A DNA stretch of 64,000 nt, from positions 62,001 to 126,000 of the forward strand of contig JAEINU010000001.1 in assembly GCA_016342685.1 (NCBI GenBank), written 5' to 3'. Numbering within the stretch: the first letter of the stretch is position 1; every line of letters starts with the position of its first letter. The DNA comes from Bacteroidales bacterium (GTDB taxonomy: Bacteria > Bacteroidota > Bacteroidia > Bacteroidales > UBA12077). Below the pieces are notes generated by a model. That model did no database searches. It was not told where the DNA came from and saw nothing but the letters and a program-made list of their open reading frames with translations. A program made the position numbers and the translations under genes. Positions 49,073-56,848 of this stretch are shown here, in pieces.

Positions 49073-51178
49073 ATGTCAGGTTATTTACAACAGGAAATAA
49101 AATTTTTAAGTGGGGTTGGTCCTAAAAAAGCAGAATTGCTCAATAAAGAGTTAGGGATTTATTCTTTTGAAAATTTGTTGTATTACTTCCCATATAAATA
49201 CATCGATCGATCAAAATTTTATAAAATAAGCGAGTTAAATCCAAATCTTTCAAACATTCAATTAAAGGGGAAAATAATTAGCTTTGAAATGGCGGGCGCT
49301 GGATCAAAAAAAAGATTGATAGCGCATTTTACTGATGGAACAGGAACTATTGAGTTATTGTGGTTTAAAGGTTTAAGTTTTATTCAAAAAAGTGTTTCGT
49401 TGAATGCGGAATATATTGTTTTTGGTAAACCAGGATATTTCAGTGGAAAGTACAATATCATTCATCCCGAAATAGAAGATAGCCTTAAAAGTAAAAATGT
49501 AATTCGGGCAAAACTCCAAGCGCATTATAATACAACAGAAAAATTAAAAAAGAATTTCTTACACTCAAAAGCTGTTTCTAAACTTGAAAATAATCTTTTA
49601 CTTCTGTTAAAAGATAAAATTCAGGAAAGCTTACCCGATTATCTCTTGGAGAAATACAATTTAATCCCACTCAAGTATGCTTTAATTAATATTCATTTTC
49701 CACAAAATCCTGATTTGCTTAAAAAATCAATTTATAGATTGAAATTCGAAGAACTGTTTTACCTTCAGTTAAATATATTACAGAAGAGAAGTATTCGTAT
49801 TCATAAATCAAAAGGATATGTTTTTTCTAAAGTAGGAGATAGCTTAAATCAGTTTTACGAAAATAATTTACCATTTGAATTAACAGGAGCGCAAAAAAGA
49901 GTTTTAAAAGAGATAAGAAAAGATATTGGTTCGGGAAAACAAATGAATCGTTTGCTCCAGGGCGATGTTGGAAGTGGAAAAACCTTAGTTGCATTAATGA
50001 GTATGTTAATTGCTTTGGATAATGGCTTTCAGGCTTGTATTATGGCACCAACTGAGATTTTGGCTAATCAACATTTAGTTACAATAAAAGAATTTTTAGA
50101 TGGCTTACCAATAAATGTTGAATTATTAACAGGATCGACAAAAGCAAAAGCACGCAAGGGCTTGCATGAAAGATTATTAAATGGCGATCTTCAAATATTA
50201 ATCGGTACGCATGCATTAATAGAAGATACTGTTCAGTTTAGAAATTTGGGTTTGGTTGTTATCGACGAACAGCATAGGTTTGGTGTTGCACAACGAGCAA
50301 AGTTGTGGAAGAAAAATATTCAACCACCTCATGTTCTTGTAATGACAGCAACCCCAATCCCTCGAACATTAGCAATGACTATATATGGAGATTTGGAAGT
50401 ATCTGTAATTGATGAGTTACCACCAGGTCGTAAACCAATTCAAACAACACATTTATTCGATTCGAAACGATTGCGAATGTTTGGTTTTTTAAGACAACAG
50501 ATCGAGCTAGGGCGACAAATTTACATTGTTTATCCATTAATTAAGGAATCCGAAAAAATGGATTATAAAGATTTGGAAGATGGATATGAAAGCATTACGC
50601 AGGCTTTTCCGCCTCCTAAATATGCTGTAAGTGTTGTGCATGGAAAAATGAAGCCTGAAGAAAAAGAAGCTGCAATGAATCTTTTTGTGAAAGGTCAAAC
50701 ACATATCATGGTTGCAACAACCGTAATTGAGGTTGGTGTAAATGTCCCAAACGCTTCGGTAATGGTTATTGAAAGTACCGAACGGTTTGGTTTATCTCAG
50801 TTGCATCAGCTACGTGGACGCGTGGGGCGTGGAGCAGATCAATCATTTTGTATTTTAATGACATCGTATAAACTGTCGAACGAAGCGCGAAAACGCATCC
50901 AAATAATGACTGGTACAAACGATGGTTTTGAGATTGCCGAAGCCGATTTAAAATTACGAGGTCCAGGCGATATTGAGGGAACTCAACAAAGCGGTATTGC
51001 TTTTGATTTAAAAATTGCAAATCTCGGAAAAGACGGGCAATTGATTCAATATGTGCGAGATGTTGCAGAGGAGATTTTAGATAATGATCCAGAATTGAAA
51101 ATGCCGGAAAATAAGGTCTTACGAAATCAATTGCAGAAAATCTCGAACAAGAAAGTTGATTTTAGTCAAGTAAGTTAG
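49073..51178 (+). CDS. recG: ATP-dependent DNA helicase RecG
   Basis: A 701-residue fork-reversal helicase. The N-terminal wedge domain starts IKFLSGVGPKKAELL and includes an OB-fold (LKGKIISFEMAGAGSKKRL). The helicase core has Walker A QGDVGSGKT, motif II VVIDEQHRFGV, motif III TATPIPRTLA, and motif VI QLRGRVGRG. The C-terminus reads ISNKKVDFSQVS. The coding sequence of that end, through the stop codon, is repeated 2.5 kb downstream after the next gene. The gene is otherwise intact and normal in length. Confidence 0.97.
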   Translation: MSGYLQQEIKFLSGVGPKKAELLNKELGIYSFENLLYYFPYKYIDRSKFYKISELNPNLSNIQLKGKIISFEMAGAGSKKRLIAHFTDGTGTIELLWFKGLSFIQKSVSLNAEYIVFGKPGYFSGKYNIIHPEIEDSLKSKNVIRAKLQAHYNTTEKLKKNFLHSKAVSKLENNLLLLLKDKIQESLPDYLLEKYNLIPLKYALINIHFPQNPDLLKKSIYRLKFEELFYLQLNILQKRSIRIHKSKGYVFSKVGDSLNQFYENNLPFELTGAQKRVLKEIRKDIGSGKQMNRLLQGDVGSGKTLVALMSMLIALDNGFQACIMAPTEILANQHLVTIKEFLDGLPINVELLTGSTKAKARKGLHERLLNGDLQILIGTHALIEDTVQFRNLGLVVIDEQHRFGVAQRAKLWKKNIQPPHVLVMTATPIPRTLAMTIYGDLEVSVIDELPPGRKPIQTTHLFDSKRLRMFGFLRQQIELGRQIYIVYPLIKESEKMDYKDLEDGYESITQAFPPPKYAVSVVHGKMKPEEKEAAMNLFVKGQTHIMVATTVIEVGVNVPNASVMVIESTERFGLSQLHQLRGRVGRGADQSFCILMTSYKLSNEARKRIQIMTGTNDGFEIAEADLKLRGPGDIEGTQQSGIAFDLKIANLGKDGQLIQYVRDVAEEILDNDPELKMPENKVLRNQLQKISNKKVDFSQVS

Positions 51179-51180
51179 AA
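51140..51180 (+). repeat. Direct repeat, left copy (recG 3' end)
   Basis: Covers the last 12 codons of recG, its stop and two further bases. 38 of 41 positions are identical to 53658-53698; the first 27 are identical without a break. The TPR gene starts 10 bases after it. Confidence 0.9.
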
Positions 51181-51190
51181 CAAAATATAC

Positions 51191-53677
51191 ATGATTATGA
51201 GATTAAAACTTTTTATTGGGTTTTTATTATTGTTTTTTGTTACCCAAAAATCATTTGGACAAAACTATTTTCAAAGGGAATTTCAGAATAAGAATTCGTT
51301 AAATACTCTTATAGAAAAAGATAGTATCAATAATTATTTACCCTCGAATGTATACAATGAGATATGGAAAAAATCGGAGGATATTAATGAAAAAGATGCC
51401 TTCGGTTTTTACAGAAGAGCTGCAGATAAATATGAACAGGGTTTAATAGATGAGGCAATTGGAGATCTTGATAGGTCAATATTGATTGACTCAAGTGTCA
51501 GTCTTAGTTATAGTTTAAGAGCTTTATGTAAAATCGGACGGCAATATAGTACGATTGAGATAATAGGAGATATTAATAAAGCAATCGATTTAGACAGCGA
51601 AAATTGGCAAGCGTATAACTTGAAAGGTTACCTGAGTTTAAACCAAAATGAGTTATCTGTTGCAGAAGATAATTTTAATAAAGCACTAGAAGTAAAGAAA
51701 GATATACCAGAATCCTATTTGTATCTCGGAGATATTTATTTTTTAAAAAGGAAATATTATAAAGCAATAAGGTATTACAATAAAGCCATTCAGTTAAACA
51801 AGAACTTGTTTGAAGCATACTTAAAAAAAGCCCAGAGCATTCTTTTTACTGATAGGTATGAAGATGCACTAGAAGTAATAGATGAGTTAATTGAAGTTAA
51901 CCCAGAAAACTATAAAGCTTATGCAACCAAGTCTGATTTGTATATTATAATGGGGAGGTTTAAAGAAGCAAATAAATACATTAACAAGGGATTGGAAAAG
52001 AAACCTAATGATTATATGTTATTACTAAAAAAGGCTGTTGTGGCATTTGGTCTTAATGATTTTAATACATGTTACGACAGGTTTAACGAAGCAGTTTTTA
52101 GTGATTCTTCAAGTATTAATGAATTAGGCATTGATTTTAAGGATAATCTTTTGACAAAGATAAATATTGCCGACTATCATTTTAAAGGTGAACAGAAAAT
52201 CGATAAAAAATATCAGAATTTATATAAAAGAGCTGTCGTTCATTATATTATGAAAAAATCTGTTCTTGCATTTGGCGAGTTTCAGTTCTTAATAGAAAAT
52301 GGTGTTTGTATTCCTGAAATTTTTGAACTTAATGGAATTCTTGCATATCAATGTTACGATTATAATTATGCAGAAACTAGTTTTCAAAAGGCACTTGAAT
52401 TAAATAAAGATAATAAGAACGCTTTTGTTTATATTAACTTGGGGGTAGTGCAAAGTTTCCAAGGATATAATAAATATGCTGCATTAAATTTTTTAAGAGC
52501 TTTACGAATTGAACCAAGTAATTATAAAATATATTATTTTTTGGCTAAAATAAATATAACAATAAAAGAATATGGCAGTGCAATAGCATACTTAAATAAA
52601 GCTCTAGAATTAAATCCTAATGCATTTAATATTTTTGAAGAAAGAGCCGAATTAAAAAATATACTTAGAAACTTTAATGGTGCTATTTCAGATTATATGA
52701 GAGCTATTGAACATTCTCCATTCAACAAGAATCTTTATTATACAAGTGCTGGAATACATATTCAAAATGAAGAATACGAGTTGGCAGAAGCGATATTAAA
52801 AAGGGCTTGTGCTGTTGATACAGCTGATTATGAACCGCTTTTTGTTTTGGGTAATTATTATTACTCCCAAAAGGAATACAACGAAGCAATTCGATGTTAC
52901 AAGAAAGTAAAATCTAAAAATAGCAATAAACAACCGGAGTATTTTGAGTTTTATATTGCAAAATCCATTCAGGCGAAAGAAAAATATATAGAAGCAATAG
53001 AGCTCTATAAAAATATTATTAAAAATTATGAAAGCCGTTCATTTAAAGTAGATAACTTTCATTACATGAAAACGCTTGTAAATATTGGGAGGTGTTATGG
53101 AGATATAGCTGATTCAATTAAAAAGCAAGACTATTTTGATAAGCTTATGAAATTTGAAAACTTAAAATCAGATTATTATTTAGCTAAGGCTGTGTGTTTT
53201 GAAAATGTTAAAGAATATAATTATAGTATAGAATGTTTAGAAAGGAGCTTGTTGATGGATAGTGCAAATTATAATACTTACATTCATCTAGGAAAGGTGT
53301 TTGTTAAAAATAGGGATTATACGGGTGCCTTAGATATATTAAATGAAGCCATTTTAGTTGATTCTGTAAATTATCAGGCATATGAAGTTATTGGTAGGGT
53401 GAAATATGAAAACAAGGAATATAGTGATGCAATTATTTATTCGAAAATGGCTATAGAAAGAAATCCATTAATAATAAAACCAAAAATTGTTATAATGATT
53501 TCAGAAATGCTTTTGGGAAACGAAGGTGAAGCAAAGAAAATAATGGATCAGATTAGAAATGGGTTAACTAAATTAGAGCTAAATGAAATAAAAGAAGACA
53601 TAGATAATCTAATTAGTCAAAAAAACAATTTGTATAATATAAACGAATTGTTGAGATATCTCGAACAAGAAAGTTGA
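51191..53677 (+). CDS. Large exported tetratricopeptide-repeat protein
   Basis: An 828-residue protein: a signal peptide (1-24, ending KSFGQ), then almost continuous TPR units (about 16) from residue 70 to 800, for example SYLYLGDIYFLKRKYYKAIR and AFVYINLGVVQSFQGYNKYA. No catalytic domain is visible, so it is probably a periplasmic or surface scaffold. It lies between recG and a DUF3108 gene and is bracketed by a 41-base direct repeat of the recG 3' end. Its own stop codon lies inside the right copy, so its last five residues (LEQES) are encoded by recG-derived sequence in another frame. This points to insertion or duplication at this locus. The second Met (51197) is an alternative start. Confidence 0.9.
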   Translation: MIMRLKLFIGFLLLFFVTQKSFGQNYFQREFQNKNSLNTLIEKDSINNYLPSNVYNEIWKKSEDINEKDAFGFYRRAADKYEQGLIDEAIGDLDRSILIDSSVSLSYSLRALCKIGRQYSTIEIIGDINKAIDLDSENWQAYNLKGYLSLNQNELSVAEDNFNKALEVKKDIPESYLYLGDIYFLKRKYYKAIRYYNKAIQLNKNLFEAYLKKAQSILFTDRYEDALEVIDELIEVNPENYKAYATKSDLYIIMGRFKEANKYINKGLEKKPNDYMLLLKKAVVAFGLNDFNTCYDRFNEAVFSDSSSINELGIDFKDNLLTKINIADYHFKGEQKIDKKYQNLYKRAVVHYIMKKSVLAFGEFQFLIENGVCIPEIFELNGILAYQCYDYNYAETSFQKALELNKDNKNAFVYINLGVVQSFQGYNKYAALNFLRALRIEPSNYKIYYFLAKINITIKEYGSAIAYLNKALELNPNAFNIFEERAELKNILRNFNGAISDYMRAIEHSPFNKNLYYTSAGIHIQNEEYELAEAILKRACAVDTADYEPLFVLGNYYYSQKEYNEAIRCYKKVKSKNSNKQPEYFEFYIAKSIQAKEKYIEAIELYKNIIKNYESRSFKVDNFHYMKTLVNIGRCYGDIADSIKKQDYFDKLMKFENLKSDYYLAKAVCFENVKEYNYSIECLERSLLMDSANYNTYIHLGKVFVKNRDYTGALDILNEAILVDSVNYQAYEVIGRVKYENKEYSDAIIYSKMAIERNPLIIKPKIVIMISEMLLGNEGEAKKIMDQIRNGLTKLELNEIKEDIDNLISQKNNLYNINELLRYLEQES

Positions 53678-53698
53678 TTTTAGTGTAATAAGTTAGAA
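53658..53698 (+). repeat. Direct repeat, right copy (after the TPR gene)
   Basis: Second copy of the recG 3'-end sequence. It differs from 51140-51180 at three clustered positions (53685, 53686 and 53688). It includes the end of the TPR reading frame and lies 39 bases before the DUF3108 start. Confidence 0.9.
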
Positions 53699-53736
53699 GA
53701 ATTAAAGTTCTTAGTTTATAGTTTAAAAACAGGTTG

Positions 53737-54552
53737 ATGCGAAAATATATTCTATTAATAATTTTATTGTATAGTTCAACACACATATGGGCACAAGAAA
53801 AACCTTGTGAGATTCAGAATAAGGCTTTTAAAGCTGGAGAGAAATTAAATTATGTAATTACCTACAATTGGTTTCTTGTTTGGACAGATGTTGGAGGAGT
53901 AGAGTTTGTTGCTTCTGAAGATACTGTTTTTGGACAGGATGTATTTAACCTAAAAGGAACGGGAGTAACATTCTCTTTCTACGATTGGTTTTTTCAGGTT
54001 CGTGATGTTTATCAGTCATGGGTTCGTCCGGATAATTTGCTTCCGGTTTATTATCATCGGGATGTAAACGAAGATGGATATATCATAGATTATAAGTATA
54101 AATACGATTTCGAAAATTTAGTGGCTTATTCGGAGCGTATCAAAACTAGAAAACCATTCAGGCAGGATACCGTAGCTATTTTTCCATGCACATACGATGT
54201 TATATCTGTTATATATCAGGCTCGTAATATCGATTTTACAAAATACAAAAAGAACGAGAGAATCCCTTTTAAAATCCTTTTAGATAATGAAATTCACGAA
54301 GTTTTTATAAGGTACAAAGGAAAAGAAGTTAAGAAGGTTCGTGGTGTTGGTAAGTTTAATACCATAAAATTTACAGGATCTCTGGTTGCAGGAGATGTGT
54401 TTGAAGGGGGAGAGGATCTTCAAATTTGGGTAACCGATGATGAAAATAGGGTTCCTGTATGGATCGAAAGTCCAATAATTGTTGGTACTATAAAAGCGCG
54501 ATTAGTTGATTATGAAGGACTGCGTCATCCTCTAAAATCATTGATAAAATAA
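53737..54552 (+). CDS. DUF3108 exported protein
   Basis: A 271-residue protein with a signal peptide (ending HIWAQ) and the DUF3108 pattern: FKAGEKLNYVITYNWFLVW near the start, VYQSWVRPDNLLPVYYHRDV in the middle, and LQIWVTDDENRVPVWIES near the end. The fold is beta-rich and the function unknown; members are found in the periplasm of many Gram-negatives. The start is the ATG at 53737. Before the TPR insertion this gene was probably next to recG. Confidence 0.88.
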   Translation: MRKYILLIILLYSSTHIWAQEKPCEIQNKAFKAGEKLNYVITYNWFLVWTDVGGVEFVASEDTVFGQDVFNLKGTGVTFSFYDWFFQVRDVYQSWVRPDNLLPVYYHRDVNEDGYIIDYKYKYDFENLVAYSERIKTRKPFRQDTVAIFPCTYDVISVIYQARNIDFTKYKKNERIPFKILLDNEIHEVFIRYKGKEVKKVRGVGKFNTIKFTGSLVAGDVFEGGEDLQIWVTDDENRVPVWIESPIIVGTIKARLVDYEGLRHPLKSLIK

Positions 54553-54638: not shown

Positions 54639-55682
54639 ATGGAAAATTTAGTTAATCGATTTAAAAGATACCGCACAGTTCGACATATTGAGAATACTTA
54701 TAAAAAAAAATACGCTTTTATTGGAATGGGAAATCATTCAATAAATAATTTATATCCCGTTTTAGATTATTTGAATGTTGATTTAAAGTATGTTGTAACA
54801 AAAAGTGAGCAAACAGCTAAAGCAATTTCCGACAACTACTCTAAATATATTGGAACGAACGATTTGGATCTGGTTTTAAACGACAGCGAAATTTCAGGAG
54901 TTTTTGTTTCGGCAAATCCGAAATCCCATTTCGAATTAATAAAGAAGATCTTAAAAATGGATAAAAACGTTTTCGTCGAGAAACCTCCATGCTATACAAA
55001 ACATGAATTATTCGAATTAATTGAAATAGAAAAAGAAAGTAAAGGAATTGTTCTTGTTGGATTTCAAAAGAGATATGCTCCATTGTATTCAATTCTTAAA
55101 CGAGAAATTAAAAAGCCCGAATATTATTCATTTAAATATGTGGTTGGTAATTATCCCGAAGGTGATATGTTGTTAGATTTATTTATTCACCCTATAGATT
55201 TAACGAATTATTTATTTGGAGATGCCAAAATTTCTTCACTCCAGAATATAGGAAAAGAAAAAGGAGTACAGACTCTTTTAATTCACCTTGAGCATAAGAA
55301 TGGGGTGATTGGTAATTTAGAACTTTCTACAGATTATTGGTGGTCGAAGAGTTACGAGAAATTATTTGTTAATGCAGATAAGAAATATTTTAAAAGTAAA
55401 AATACCGATAAATTGAAATCGATTCCAAAGCCGGCAAGTATTTTGTCTGTACCTATAGAAAAAATAAAAACACCACAAATAGAGACAAAAGTGCTTTACG
55501 AGCAAAATAATTTTCTTCCAAGCAGAGAGCAAAATCAATTATATTCTTCGGGATATTTTGCTGAAATACAAACGTTTCTTGATCTTTGCGAACAGAGGAG
55601 TGCGAAAAACCTCACATCATTAAGCGATCTTGTAATCACCTACAATCTTATCGACAATATTCAAAATAAATTAAGATCTTAA
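54639..55682 (+). CDS. Gfo/Idh/MocA family oxidoreductase
   Basis: A 347-residue NAD(P)-dependent oxidoreductase with an N-terminal Rossmann domain (YAFIGMGNHSINNLYPVL, about 24-41), the EKP motif VFVEKPPCYTK (about 110-118) and a C-terminal domain with DLFIHPIDLTNYLFG. Family members act on sugars, inositol or biliverdin-like substrates; the specific one is not deducible. About 20 basic residues precede the Rossmann fold, which is unusual. The downstream radical SAM gene is 101 bases away and has its own promoter, but the pair may be functionally linked. Confidence 0.85.
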   Translation: MENLVNRFKRYRTVRHIENTYKKKYAFIGMGNHSINNLYPVLDYLNVDLKYVVTKSEQTAKAISDNYSKYIGTNDLDLVLNDSEISGVFVSANPKSHFELIKKILKMDKNVFVEKPPCYTKHELFELIEIEKESKGIVLVGFQKRYAPLYSILKREIKKPEYYSFKYVVGNYPEGDMLLDLFIHPIDLTNYLFGDAKISSLQNIGKEKGVQTLLIHLEHKNGVIGNLELSTDYWWSKSYEKLFVNADKKYFKSKNTDKLKSIPKPASILSVPIEKIKTPQIETKVLYEQNNFLPSREQNQLYSSGYFAEIQTFLDLCEQRSAKNLTSLSDLVITYNLIDNIQNKLRS

Positions 55683-55722
55683 GAAACAAATTGTAAGTCC
55701 AAAATTATCTGAGTTTAATTAG

Positions 55723-55730
55723 TATTTTTG
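55723..55730 (+). promoter_or_regulatory. -7 box for the radical SAM gene (TATTTTTG)
   Basis: Exact TAnnTTTG 53 bases before the start at 55784. Confidence 0.45.
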
Positions 55731-55783
55731 CATCTTCGAAATCAGAAGGCAAATTATTGCGTTAATTATAATACGATTATTGA

Positions 55784-56848
55784 ATGTATAAAGTATCAGA
55801 CTATATAAACAGGGGAGTTAAATTAGTAAATAACATAGTTTTTCCTAAACATAAGAAATTGTCAACAATAATGCTTTACTCTACCGATCGATGTAATTCG
55901 AAATGTAAGCATTGTTTTATATGGGAAAAAAACCCGAAGCAACATTTGCCTTTTGAGAAAGTAAAGGAAATAATTGAAAGTCCGGTTGTCGATAAAAACA
56001 CCTTGATTGGTCTTGAAGGTGGCGAGTTTATTATGCATCCCGAAGCAGAAAAGATTTTTGAGTACATGGCAGCAAATCACCCTAATTTTGATTTGCTATC
56101 CAACGCAATTATGGGCGATAAGTTGTACGATTATACGTTAAAATATAAACCCAAAAGACTCTTTATTTCTCTTGATGGAAATCGAGAAACATATAAGAAT
56201 CTTCGAGGAGTTGATGCTTACGATAAAGTAATTGAAAGTATTATTCGACTTAAAGATATTGTTCCGGTATCAATTATGTTTACACTTACAAATCACAATG
56301 ATTTTAATGATTTAGTTCACGTGGGTGACTTTTGTAAAAAGCATGAGCTTGATATGCGAATTGGAATCTACAATACAATGGATTATTTTGATACCAATAG
56401 CGCAGAAGAAAAATCAGATTCCTTAAATTATAATGCGGAAGATATTCCTGCTATTGTTAAAGATTTTAAGGAGAATTACGATTTCATGGCTTTGTATCCT
56501 AAACACAGAGAAGGGAATTTGAAATTAACATGCAACAGTATTAGCGATAGCATTGTAATTTATCCAAATGGAGATATTCCTATTTGTCAGAATAAACAAA
56601 TTATTCTAGGAAATATTTTCAAAGAATCACTACACAAAGTTGTTAATAAAAAAGCTACAGTAAAGCTACATAAACAGTATAAGCACAATTGCAATGAATG
56701 CTGGGTAAATTACCACAGAAAATATGATATTGTGTTGTATCGAAATTTAGAAAAACTACTACCTAAAAAAGCAATTGAACTCATCTTTGGAAAATACAAT
56801 TGGTCAGAAAATTCAAAAGATAAATATAAAAAGGTTGTTGGTTGTTAA
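55784..56848 (+). CDS. Radical SAM protein with C-terminal cysteine cluster
   Basis: A 354-residue radical SAM enzyme. The [4Fe-4S]/SAM motif is CNSKCKHC (C37, C41, C44), followed by GLEGGEF (the GGE SAM-binding motif) and RLFISLDGNRETYKNLRG. The C-terminal part has LTCNSISDSIVIYPNGDIPIC and HNCNECW, a reduced SPASM/twitch-like cluster for a second iron-sulfur site. SPASM proteins modify peptides or act on sugars and alcohols; no peptide substrate gene is evident next to it. The last residue is cysteine. It follows a Gfo/Idh/MocA gene. Confidence 0.88.
   Translation: MYKVSDYINRGVKLVNNIVFPKHKKLSTIMLYSTDRCNSKCKHCFIWEKNPKQHLPFEKVKEIIESPVVDKNTLIGLEGGEFIMHPEAEKIFEYMAANHPNFDLLSNAIMGDKLYDYTLKYKPKRLFISLDGNRETYKNLRGVDAYDKVIESIIRLKDIVPVSIMFTLTNHNDFNDLVHVGDFCKKHELDMRIGIYNTMDYFDTNSAEEKSDSLNYNAEDIPAIVKDFKENYDFMALYPKHREGNLKLTCNSISDSIVIYPNGDIPICQNKQIILGNIFKESLHKVVNKKATVKLHKQYKHNCNECWVNYHRKYDIVLYRNLEKLLPKKAIELIFGKYNWSENSKDKYKKVVGC

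What the first reader, a model, noticed from the sequence alone, without database searches (positions are those of the whole stretch)
51140..53698. One-gene insertion at the 3' end of recG bracketed by a 41-bp direct repeat
The end of recG (51140-51180) recurs at 53658-53698 with 38 of 41 identities and 27 consecutive identical bases. The interval holds only the TPR gene, which starts 10 bases after the left copy and stops inside the right copy. A coincidental 27-base match is very unlikely. Gene 3' ends are common targets of site-specific integration, and the interrupted gene is typically restored by the repeat. Here a single non-recombinase gene seems to have been captured, or the scar of a tandem duplication or recombination with a relative remains.
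Basis: partly seen in the sequence, partly recalled or inferred. Interest (0 to 1): 0.7.

Follow-up and report, generated by a model that had tools for sequence, protein, structure and literature searches.

The report
Accessory gene inserted at recG's end
An optional gene has slipped into the very end of the DNA-repair gene recG and left recG's old end behind it as a short scar, which shows which way the change went; it is a clear but fairly ordinary case of gene gain.

Summary
A 41-base stretch at the end of recG (51140-51180) recurs at 53658-53698 (38/41, first 27 identical), brackets one TPR gene, and its 26-base core occurs only these two times in the held genome. Same-genus comparison shows insertion: of 20 genomes, 14 have recG and DUF3108 only 24-228 bases apart, 3 have a complete TPR gene there, 1 has a TPR 3' end there on one contig, and 2 cannot be scored. 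The RIGHT copy carries the usual recG ending (DFSVIS, 13 of 19 rows) and runs on colinearly into the empty-site spacer and DUF3108; the LEFT copy, which now ends recG, reads DFSQVS. So the native end was displaced and the incoming DNA supplied a substitute. The copies agree at 27/27 positions where 0 of 171 genome pairs do, so the event is recent in this lineage. The repeat is absent from the two other complete sites and the interval holds no integrase, so an att-type element is not supported, though not excluded. Most likely: recombination with a TPR-bearing relative, homologous on the left, illegitimate on the right. Ordinary in kind; tidy in detail.

The parts
49073..51178 (+). recG, 701 aa; its last 4 residues (SQVS) depart from the genus majority SVIS
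   Evidence: Pfam RecG_wedge, DEAD, Helicase_C, RecG_dom3_C; tails compared
51140..51180 (+). left copy of the repeat: functional end of recG. Bases 1-27 are shared exactly with the right copy; the last 14 hold the 3 mismatches
51191..53677 (+). TPR gene, 828 aa, signal-peptide-like start (judged by eye), many tetratricopeptide repeats; roughly the last 15 residues do not match the homologues, and the final ones are read out of frame from the recG tail
   Evidence: Pfam TPR models; homologues in G018 (41%) and G007 (38%) at the same place; C-terminus compared
53658..53698 (+). right copy: displaced native end of recG (would encode ...DFSVIS and stop), no longer part of recG
   Evidence: last 12 bases up to the stop identical to recG ends of G010, G002 and L045; colinear with the empty site of G017 from here through the spacer into DUF3108
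53699..53733 (+). old recG-DUF3108 spacer retained behind the displaced end
   Evidence: local alignment of the right copy plus spacer with G017 scores 95, maximum of 100 shuffles 35
53734..54552 (+). DUF3108 gene, neighbour of recG in the empty sites
   Evidence: Pfam PF11306; synteny

Best explanation
The recG-DUF3108 junction in this genus comes in two forms, empty and carrying a TPR gene. The ancestor of this genome had the empty form. A fragment holding the last codons of a relative's recG plus the TPR gene entered by recombination. On the left the exchange fell inside or next to the conserved GTTGATTTTAGT stretch, so recG kept its own body and took the donor's last four codons (SQVS) and stop. 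On the right the TPR 3' end was joined, without extensive homology, to the recipient's recG about 27 bases upstream of that point, so the native recG end was copied a second time and pushed downstream with the old spacer. The joint cost the TPR protein its conserved C-terminal tail and gave it a few out-of-frame residues, leaving recG, TPR and DUF3108 all open. This is what homology-facilitated illegitimate recombination, or a template switch between sister copies, could leave. Shown: empty sites, polarity, displaced end, changed end, recency, altered TPR tail. Inferred: the mechanism, the donor (not sampled), the uptake route, and the role of the TPR protein (an exported, dispensable scaffold-type protein).
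For: Empty junction (24-228 bases) in 14 of 20 genus genomes; 5 of 5 sister-genus genomes also empty. The right copy plus spacer plus DUF3108 matches the empty site of G017 in one alignment. The right copy's last 12 recG bases equal those of G010, G002 and L045, while the left copy differs from the right by 3; the ending SQVS is in 3 of 114 rows, which I take to be the own locus each time (window, L033, L001). 27/27 identity between the copies against 0 of 171 genome pairs identical, mean 4.9 differences, minimum 1. Close relatives differ in state: G007 full / G017 empty (100/100 in both trees) and window full / G014 empty (99/99 in the DNA tree only). G007 also departs from G017 after GATTTTAGT (2 of 48 against 4 of 12 differences, Fisher p 0.012). 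In G004 a contig with a TPR 3' end continues with AGTGTAATAAATTAGCGC, spacer and DUF3108, aligning to the recG end of contig L045, taken to be G004's own C518 (score 131, maximum of 100 shuffles 45): a second displaced recG end, 14 of 15 bases. The G004 TPR end matches the extreme C-termini of G018 and G007 (78 and 66, shuffled maximum 50) but not the window's (28), as expected if the window joint removed that end.
Against: No donor with an SQVS ending was found. Published products of this kind of recombination generally lose recipient DNA (passage in PMC3240628); here a short stretch was gained, which needs a second template or staggered ends. Microhomology at the right joint cannot be shown because the donor is unknown. 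G007 and G018 show no displaced recG end, so they need a clean double exchange, decay or another history. The clustering of the 3 mismatches in the last 14 bases is only weakly significant (Fisher p 0.034). The G004 case rests on two contigs of one MAG (86% complete, 4% contamination). The label 'full' is no more scattered on the tree than shuffled labels would be (3 changes, shuffled mean 2.9), so the tree alone says little.
Confidence: 0.6

Rival explanations
1. Site-specific integration: an integrase acting from elsewhere inserts a small circle carrying the TPR gene and a recG-end att site; the element restores the end of recG on the left and pushes the old end to the right.
For: The layout fits (restored gene on the left, displaced end on the right). 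The change-over point falls at about the same place, after GATTTTAGT in the window and G007, and the displaced end in G004 begins at AGT.
Against: Only one ORF of 100 aa or more in the interval, and it is the TPR gene. No matching right-hand repeat in G007 or G018. No convincing carrier: 61 plasmid records matched, all under 60% identity and the 8 listed at 20-23%; 4 phage records at 20-30%; none of 108 candidate stretches confirmed in the viral contigs. The change-over point is also the last strongly conserved stretch of recG, where a homologous exchange could end.
Confidence: 0.2
2. The TPR gene is ancestral to the clade and was lost several times; the window's repeat is a later local event (duplication, or exchange with an empty allele).
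For: In the three complete sites the TPR gene has the same orientation and starts 12-38 bases after recG. No other relative of it was found at the thresholds used in 20 genus and 25 family genomes. The TPR proteins share only about 40% identity, which could mean long separation, and codon positions show constraint.
Against: One gain would need several losses, each leaving a short empty junction. The sister genus is empty (5 of 5). The right copy is colinear with the empty site, so an empty ancestor or partner is needed anyway.
Confidence: 0.15
3. A transposase-like insertion with an unusually long (41-44 base) target-site duplication.
For: Direct repeat immediately flanking an inserted unit.
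Against: No transposase in the interval and none of the 18 listed inverted-repeat pairs sits at its two borders. A duplication this long exceeds usual target-site duplications (recalled). The functional copy, not the vestigial one, is the odd one.
Confidence: 0.04

Closest known systems
Homology-facilitated illegitimate recombination (HFIR), reported in S. pneumoniae, A. baylyi, P. stutzeri and E. coli (PMC3240628: abstract and passages seen)
   Same: One homologous and one non-homologous junction; foreign DNA anchored by a stretch shared with the recipient
   Different: Described products generally delete recipient DNA; here a 41-base stretch of the recipient is present twice
T6SS effector-immunity arrays in Vibrio cholerae, for which an HFIR-like mechanism is proposed (PMC5361080: passages seen)
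   Same: A new module is inserted by one-sided homology and an old 3' part is displaced downstream
   Different: There whole immunity genes are displaced and arrays build up; here only 41 bases of a housekeeping gene
Integrative elements in gene 3' ends (recalled; no paper read)
   Same: Gene end restored by incoming sequence, old end displaced, direct repeat at both borders
   Different: No integrase, one gene only, repeat not seen at the two other complete full sites
Transformation-made tandem duplications in S. pneumoniae (PMC3784515: abstract and passages seen)
   Same: A way to obtain a duplication by bridging sister chromatids during uptake
   Different: Those are about 100-900 kb and rely on repeats already present

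Membership tests
HFIR product | one junction explained by homology between donor and recipient | tested here: inconclusive
   recG body shows no donor-like segment along its length and the copies depart only in the last bases; donor not available
HFIR product | other junction non-homologous with short microhomology | tested here: inconclusive
   right copy starts abruptly at 53658 and the upstream flanks differ; microhomology cannot be scored without the donor
HFIR product | loss of recipient DNA at the site (general, not universal, in PMC3240628) | tested here: not met
   spacer and native recG end retained
HFIR product | RecA-dependent | not testable with these tools
   needs bench work
Integrative element at a gene 3' end | integrase gene within the element | tested here: not met
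   the TPR gene is the only ORF of 100 aa or more in the interval; an integrase elsewhere in the genome was not looked for
Integrative element at a gene 3' end | attL/attR repeat at occupied sites | tested here: not met
   complete repeat in the window only; absent in G007 and G018; G004 keeps about 15 bases of a displaced end, its left border not seen
Integrative element at a gene 3' end | empty sites with a single copy | tested here: met
   14 of 20 genus genomes
Cassette hotspot | different genes between the same repeats in different genomes | tested here: not met
   no other locus among 114 rows has a recG-tail repeat downstream
TPR protein | tetratricopeptide repeats above curated cut-offs | tested here: met
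   TPR_2, TPR_1, TPR_16, TPR_8 and others above cut-off; none of the 25 NCBIfam families reached its cut-off, so no named subfamily

The most novel reading that the evidence does not exclude
The TPR gene is a minimal unit without its own recombinase that repeatedly enters the same few bases at the end of recG across the genus, each time bringing its own replacement recG ending, so that recG 3' ends act as a landing site shared between species.
Probability: 0.12. Interest if true: 0.55.

Novelty: new member of a known kind. Interest (0 to 1): 0.3.

Why it matters
It is an unusually readable gene-gain scar: native and incoming ends of a housekeeping gene can be told apart, so the direction and relative age of the event are visible. 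It also shows that a direct repeat at a gene's 3' end need not mean an integrase-borne element.

Tried and rejected
Hotspot for other genes at recG ends: no second case in 114 rows. Mobile carrier: plasmid and phage records gave only low-identity TPR matches (61 and 4 records), viral contigs none confirmed. Wider distribution of the TPR family: order samples of 393 genomes gave only the own genome at E <= 1e-30 and E <= 1e-60, but only 2 candidates were scored in each genome of the rows shown and G007 and G018 were not hit there, so misses are possible. Mosaic test along recG: no donor-like segment in the body; the best relative changes along the gene with small margins, so this is weak evidence. 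RNA family in the 228-base spacers of G015 and G002: no Rfam match at the gathering score. Defence role of the TPR protein: PADLOC gave one marginal hit (E 0.00097). Papers: two searches held no paper (recG, insertion site, genomic island, Bacteroidetes; recG, tetratricopeptide, Bacteroidales, insertion); the listings of two broader searches showed no title on recG, and led to PMC3784515. Only open-licence full texts were searched.

The protein tree does not by itself support window and G014 as sisters (that fork is open); only the DNA tree does. The trees hold L045 and L059 as rows without the label 'full'; L045 is taken to be a contig of G004, which also has a TPR 3' end on another contig, and L059 is taken to be G006 because the recG end and spacer agree.

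Full report
OBSERVATION. The direct repeat is real. The end of recG at 51140-51180 recurs at 53658-53698 with 38 of 41 identities, the first 27 bases identical. Between the copies lies one ORF of 100 aa or more, a TPR gene of 828 codons (51191-53677) that starts 10 bases after the left copy and stops inside the right one. The 26-base core, with up to 3 mismatches, occurs only at these two places in the held genome of 4.77 Mb. A chance origin is negligible (about 1e-11 expected within 5 kb).

EMPTY AND FULL SITES. I compared the 20 held genomes of the genus. In 14 (G017, G013, G005, G015, G011, G010, G009, G014, G012, G016, G001, G019, G003, G002) recG and DUF3108 are neighbours, 24 to 228 bases apart. 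Three have a complete TPR gene there: the window, G007 and G018, the TPR proteins being 38-41% identical to the window's. G004 has a contig with a TPR 3' end before DUF3108; a contig taken to be from the same MAG (L045, which fits G004:C518 by match position) has recG followed by an empty-type junction that runs off the contig end. G006 has recG and DUF3108 on different contigs, and no recG was found in G008, which is 70% complete. All five held genomes of the sister genus are empty (G020, G021, G023, G024; G022 read by eye). No other match to the TPR family was found at E <= 1e-30 in the genus or at E <= 1e-40 in the 25 genomes of the family; the short G004 piece escaped these searches, so short fragments may have been missed. 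In samples of 393 genomes of the order only the own genome matched, with two candidates scored in each genome shown.

WHICH COPY IS OLD. Of 19 genus rows, 13 end recG with SVIS, 4 with a conservative variant (SIVS in G014, SIIS in G019 and L059, SVVS in G018), and two depart more: the window with SQVS and G007 with SKIG (read from the tails). The right copy encodes SVIS, and its last 12 recG bases are identical to those of G010, G002 and L045; the left copy differs from it at 3. From the right copy the sequence runs on colinearly through the spacer into DUF3108 as in the empty site of G017: one blastn alignment, and a local alignment score of 95 against a maximum of 35 in 100 shuffles. So the right copy with its spacer looks like the old junction, displaced, and the left ending like something that came with the insert.

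AGE. Over the 27 leading bases the two copies do not differ, whereas 171 pairs of genomes differ by 4.9 on average and at least by 1. Both stretches therefore most likely stem from this lineage and the event is recent compared with species separation. The three mismatches all lie in the last 14 bases (Fisher p 0.034), which fits an exchange near GATTTTAGT, with donor sequence after it on the left.

OTHER JUNCTIONS. G007 and its close relative G017 (empty) agree at 46 of 48 bases up to GATTTTAGT and at 8 of 12 after it (Fisher p 0.012). In G004 the bases after the TPR stop include AGTGTAATAAATTAGCGC, then spacer and DUF3108, aligned with the recG end, spacer and DUF3108 start of L045 (score 131, shuffled maximum 45); 14 of the last 15 recG bases agree. 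So a displaced recG end is seen twice, and the change-over lies close to the same point in three cases. Against a fixed recombination site, G007 and G018 show no displaced end: the best G007 alignment (score 40, shuffled maximum 36) covers only spacer and DUF3108 start, and the best G018 alignment (67) only DUF3108.

TPR GENE. The protein has a signal-peptide-like start (by eye) and many TPR motifs; none of the 25 NCBIfam families reached its cut-off. Third codon positions differ most between the three genes (0.52-0.56, against 0.26-0.34 for second positions), so it is under constraint, though evolving much faster than recG. The last residues of the window protein (LLRYLEQES) do not match the C-terminus shared by G007, G018 and the G004 fragment; the final ones are recG tail read out of frame. 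The right joint therefore probably cut the native end off.

PHYLOGENY. In trees of recG plus DUF3108 the three genomes with a complete TPR gene do not form a clade and need three changes; well-supported branches force 3 in the DNA tree and 2 in the protein tree, and shuffled labels need 2.9 on average. G007/G017 are sisters in both trees (100/100). Window/G014 are sisters in the DNA tree (99/99) but that fork is open in the protein tree. G014 shares with the window two extra genes after DUF3108 (Gfo/Idh/MocA oxidoreductase and radical SAM protein), seen there in 1 of the 14 relatives whose stretch reached the next conserved gene, which fits a close relation.

MECHANISM. The simplest account is recombination with a TPR-bearing relative: homologous on the left in the conserved recG end, illegitimate on the right, with the recipient's tail used twice. 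This resembles homology-facilitated illegitimate recombination (PMC3240628, abstract and passages seen) and the displaced genes proposed to arise by something like it in V. cholerae (PMC5361080, passages seen). It differs in gaining rather than losing recipient DNA; bridging of sister chromatids during uptake, as in PMC3784515 (passages seen), or a template switch could supply the second copy. This step is inferred. Site-specific integration remains possible but lacks an integrase in the interval and constant borders; an integrase elsewhere in the genome was not looked for. The finding is best filed as a well-resolved new example of a known kind of event.

Noticed in passing
window 54639-56848: Gfo/Idh/MocA oxidoreductase and radical SAM genes directly after DUF3108. 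Among 14 relatives whose stretch reached the next conserved gene, only G014 has them there; in G006 similar genes lie just before DUF3108 (radical SAM confirmed), and G007 and G017 have the radical SAM gene on another contig. Possibly a second shifting gene pair at this locus.
   Followed up: partly
L133 (G004:C507) and L045 (taken to be G004:C518): One MAG appears to hold both a TPR-bearing and an empty-type version of the junction, about 87% alike over 100 aligned columns; either two strains or a larger duplication.
   Followed up: partly
L128 5979-6206 and L142 975-1201: The recG-DUF3108 spacers of G015 and G002 hold a long stretch that looks well conserved between the two (by eye), with no Rfam match at the gathering score.
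   Followed up: partly
spacers after recG in L125, L128, L129, L130, L135, L136: Several spacers contain near-repeats of the AGTTTAAAGTTT type; nature unknown.
   Followed up: no
L138 (G019): The recG match is split into separate pieces in tblastn (L020, shortened best piece), so recG may be interrupted or mis-assembled there.
   Followed up: no
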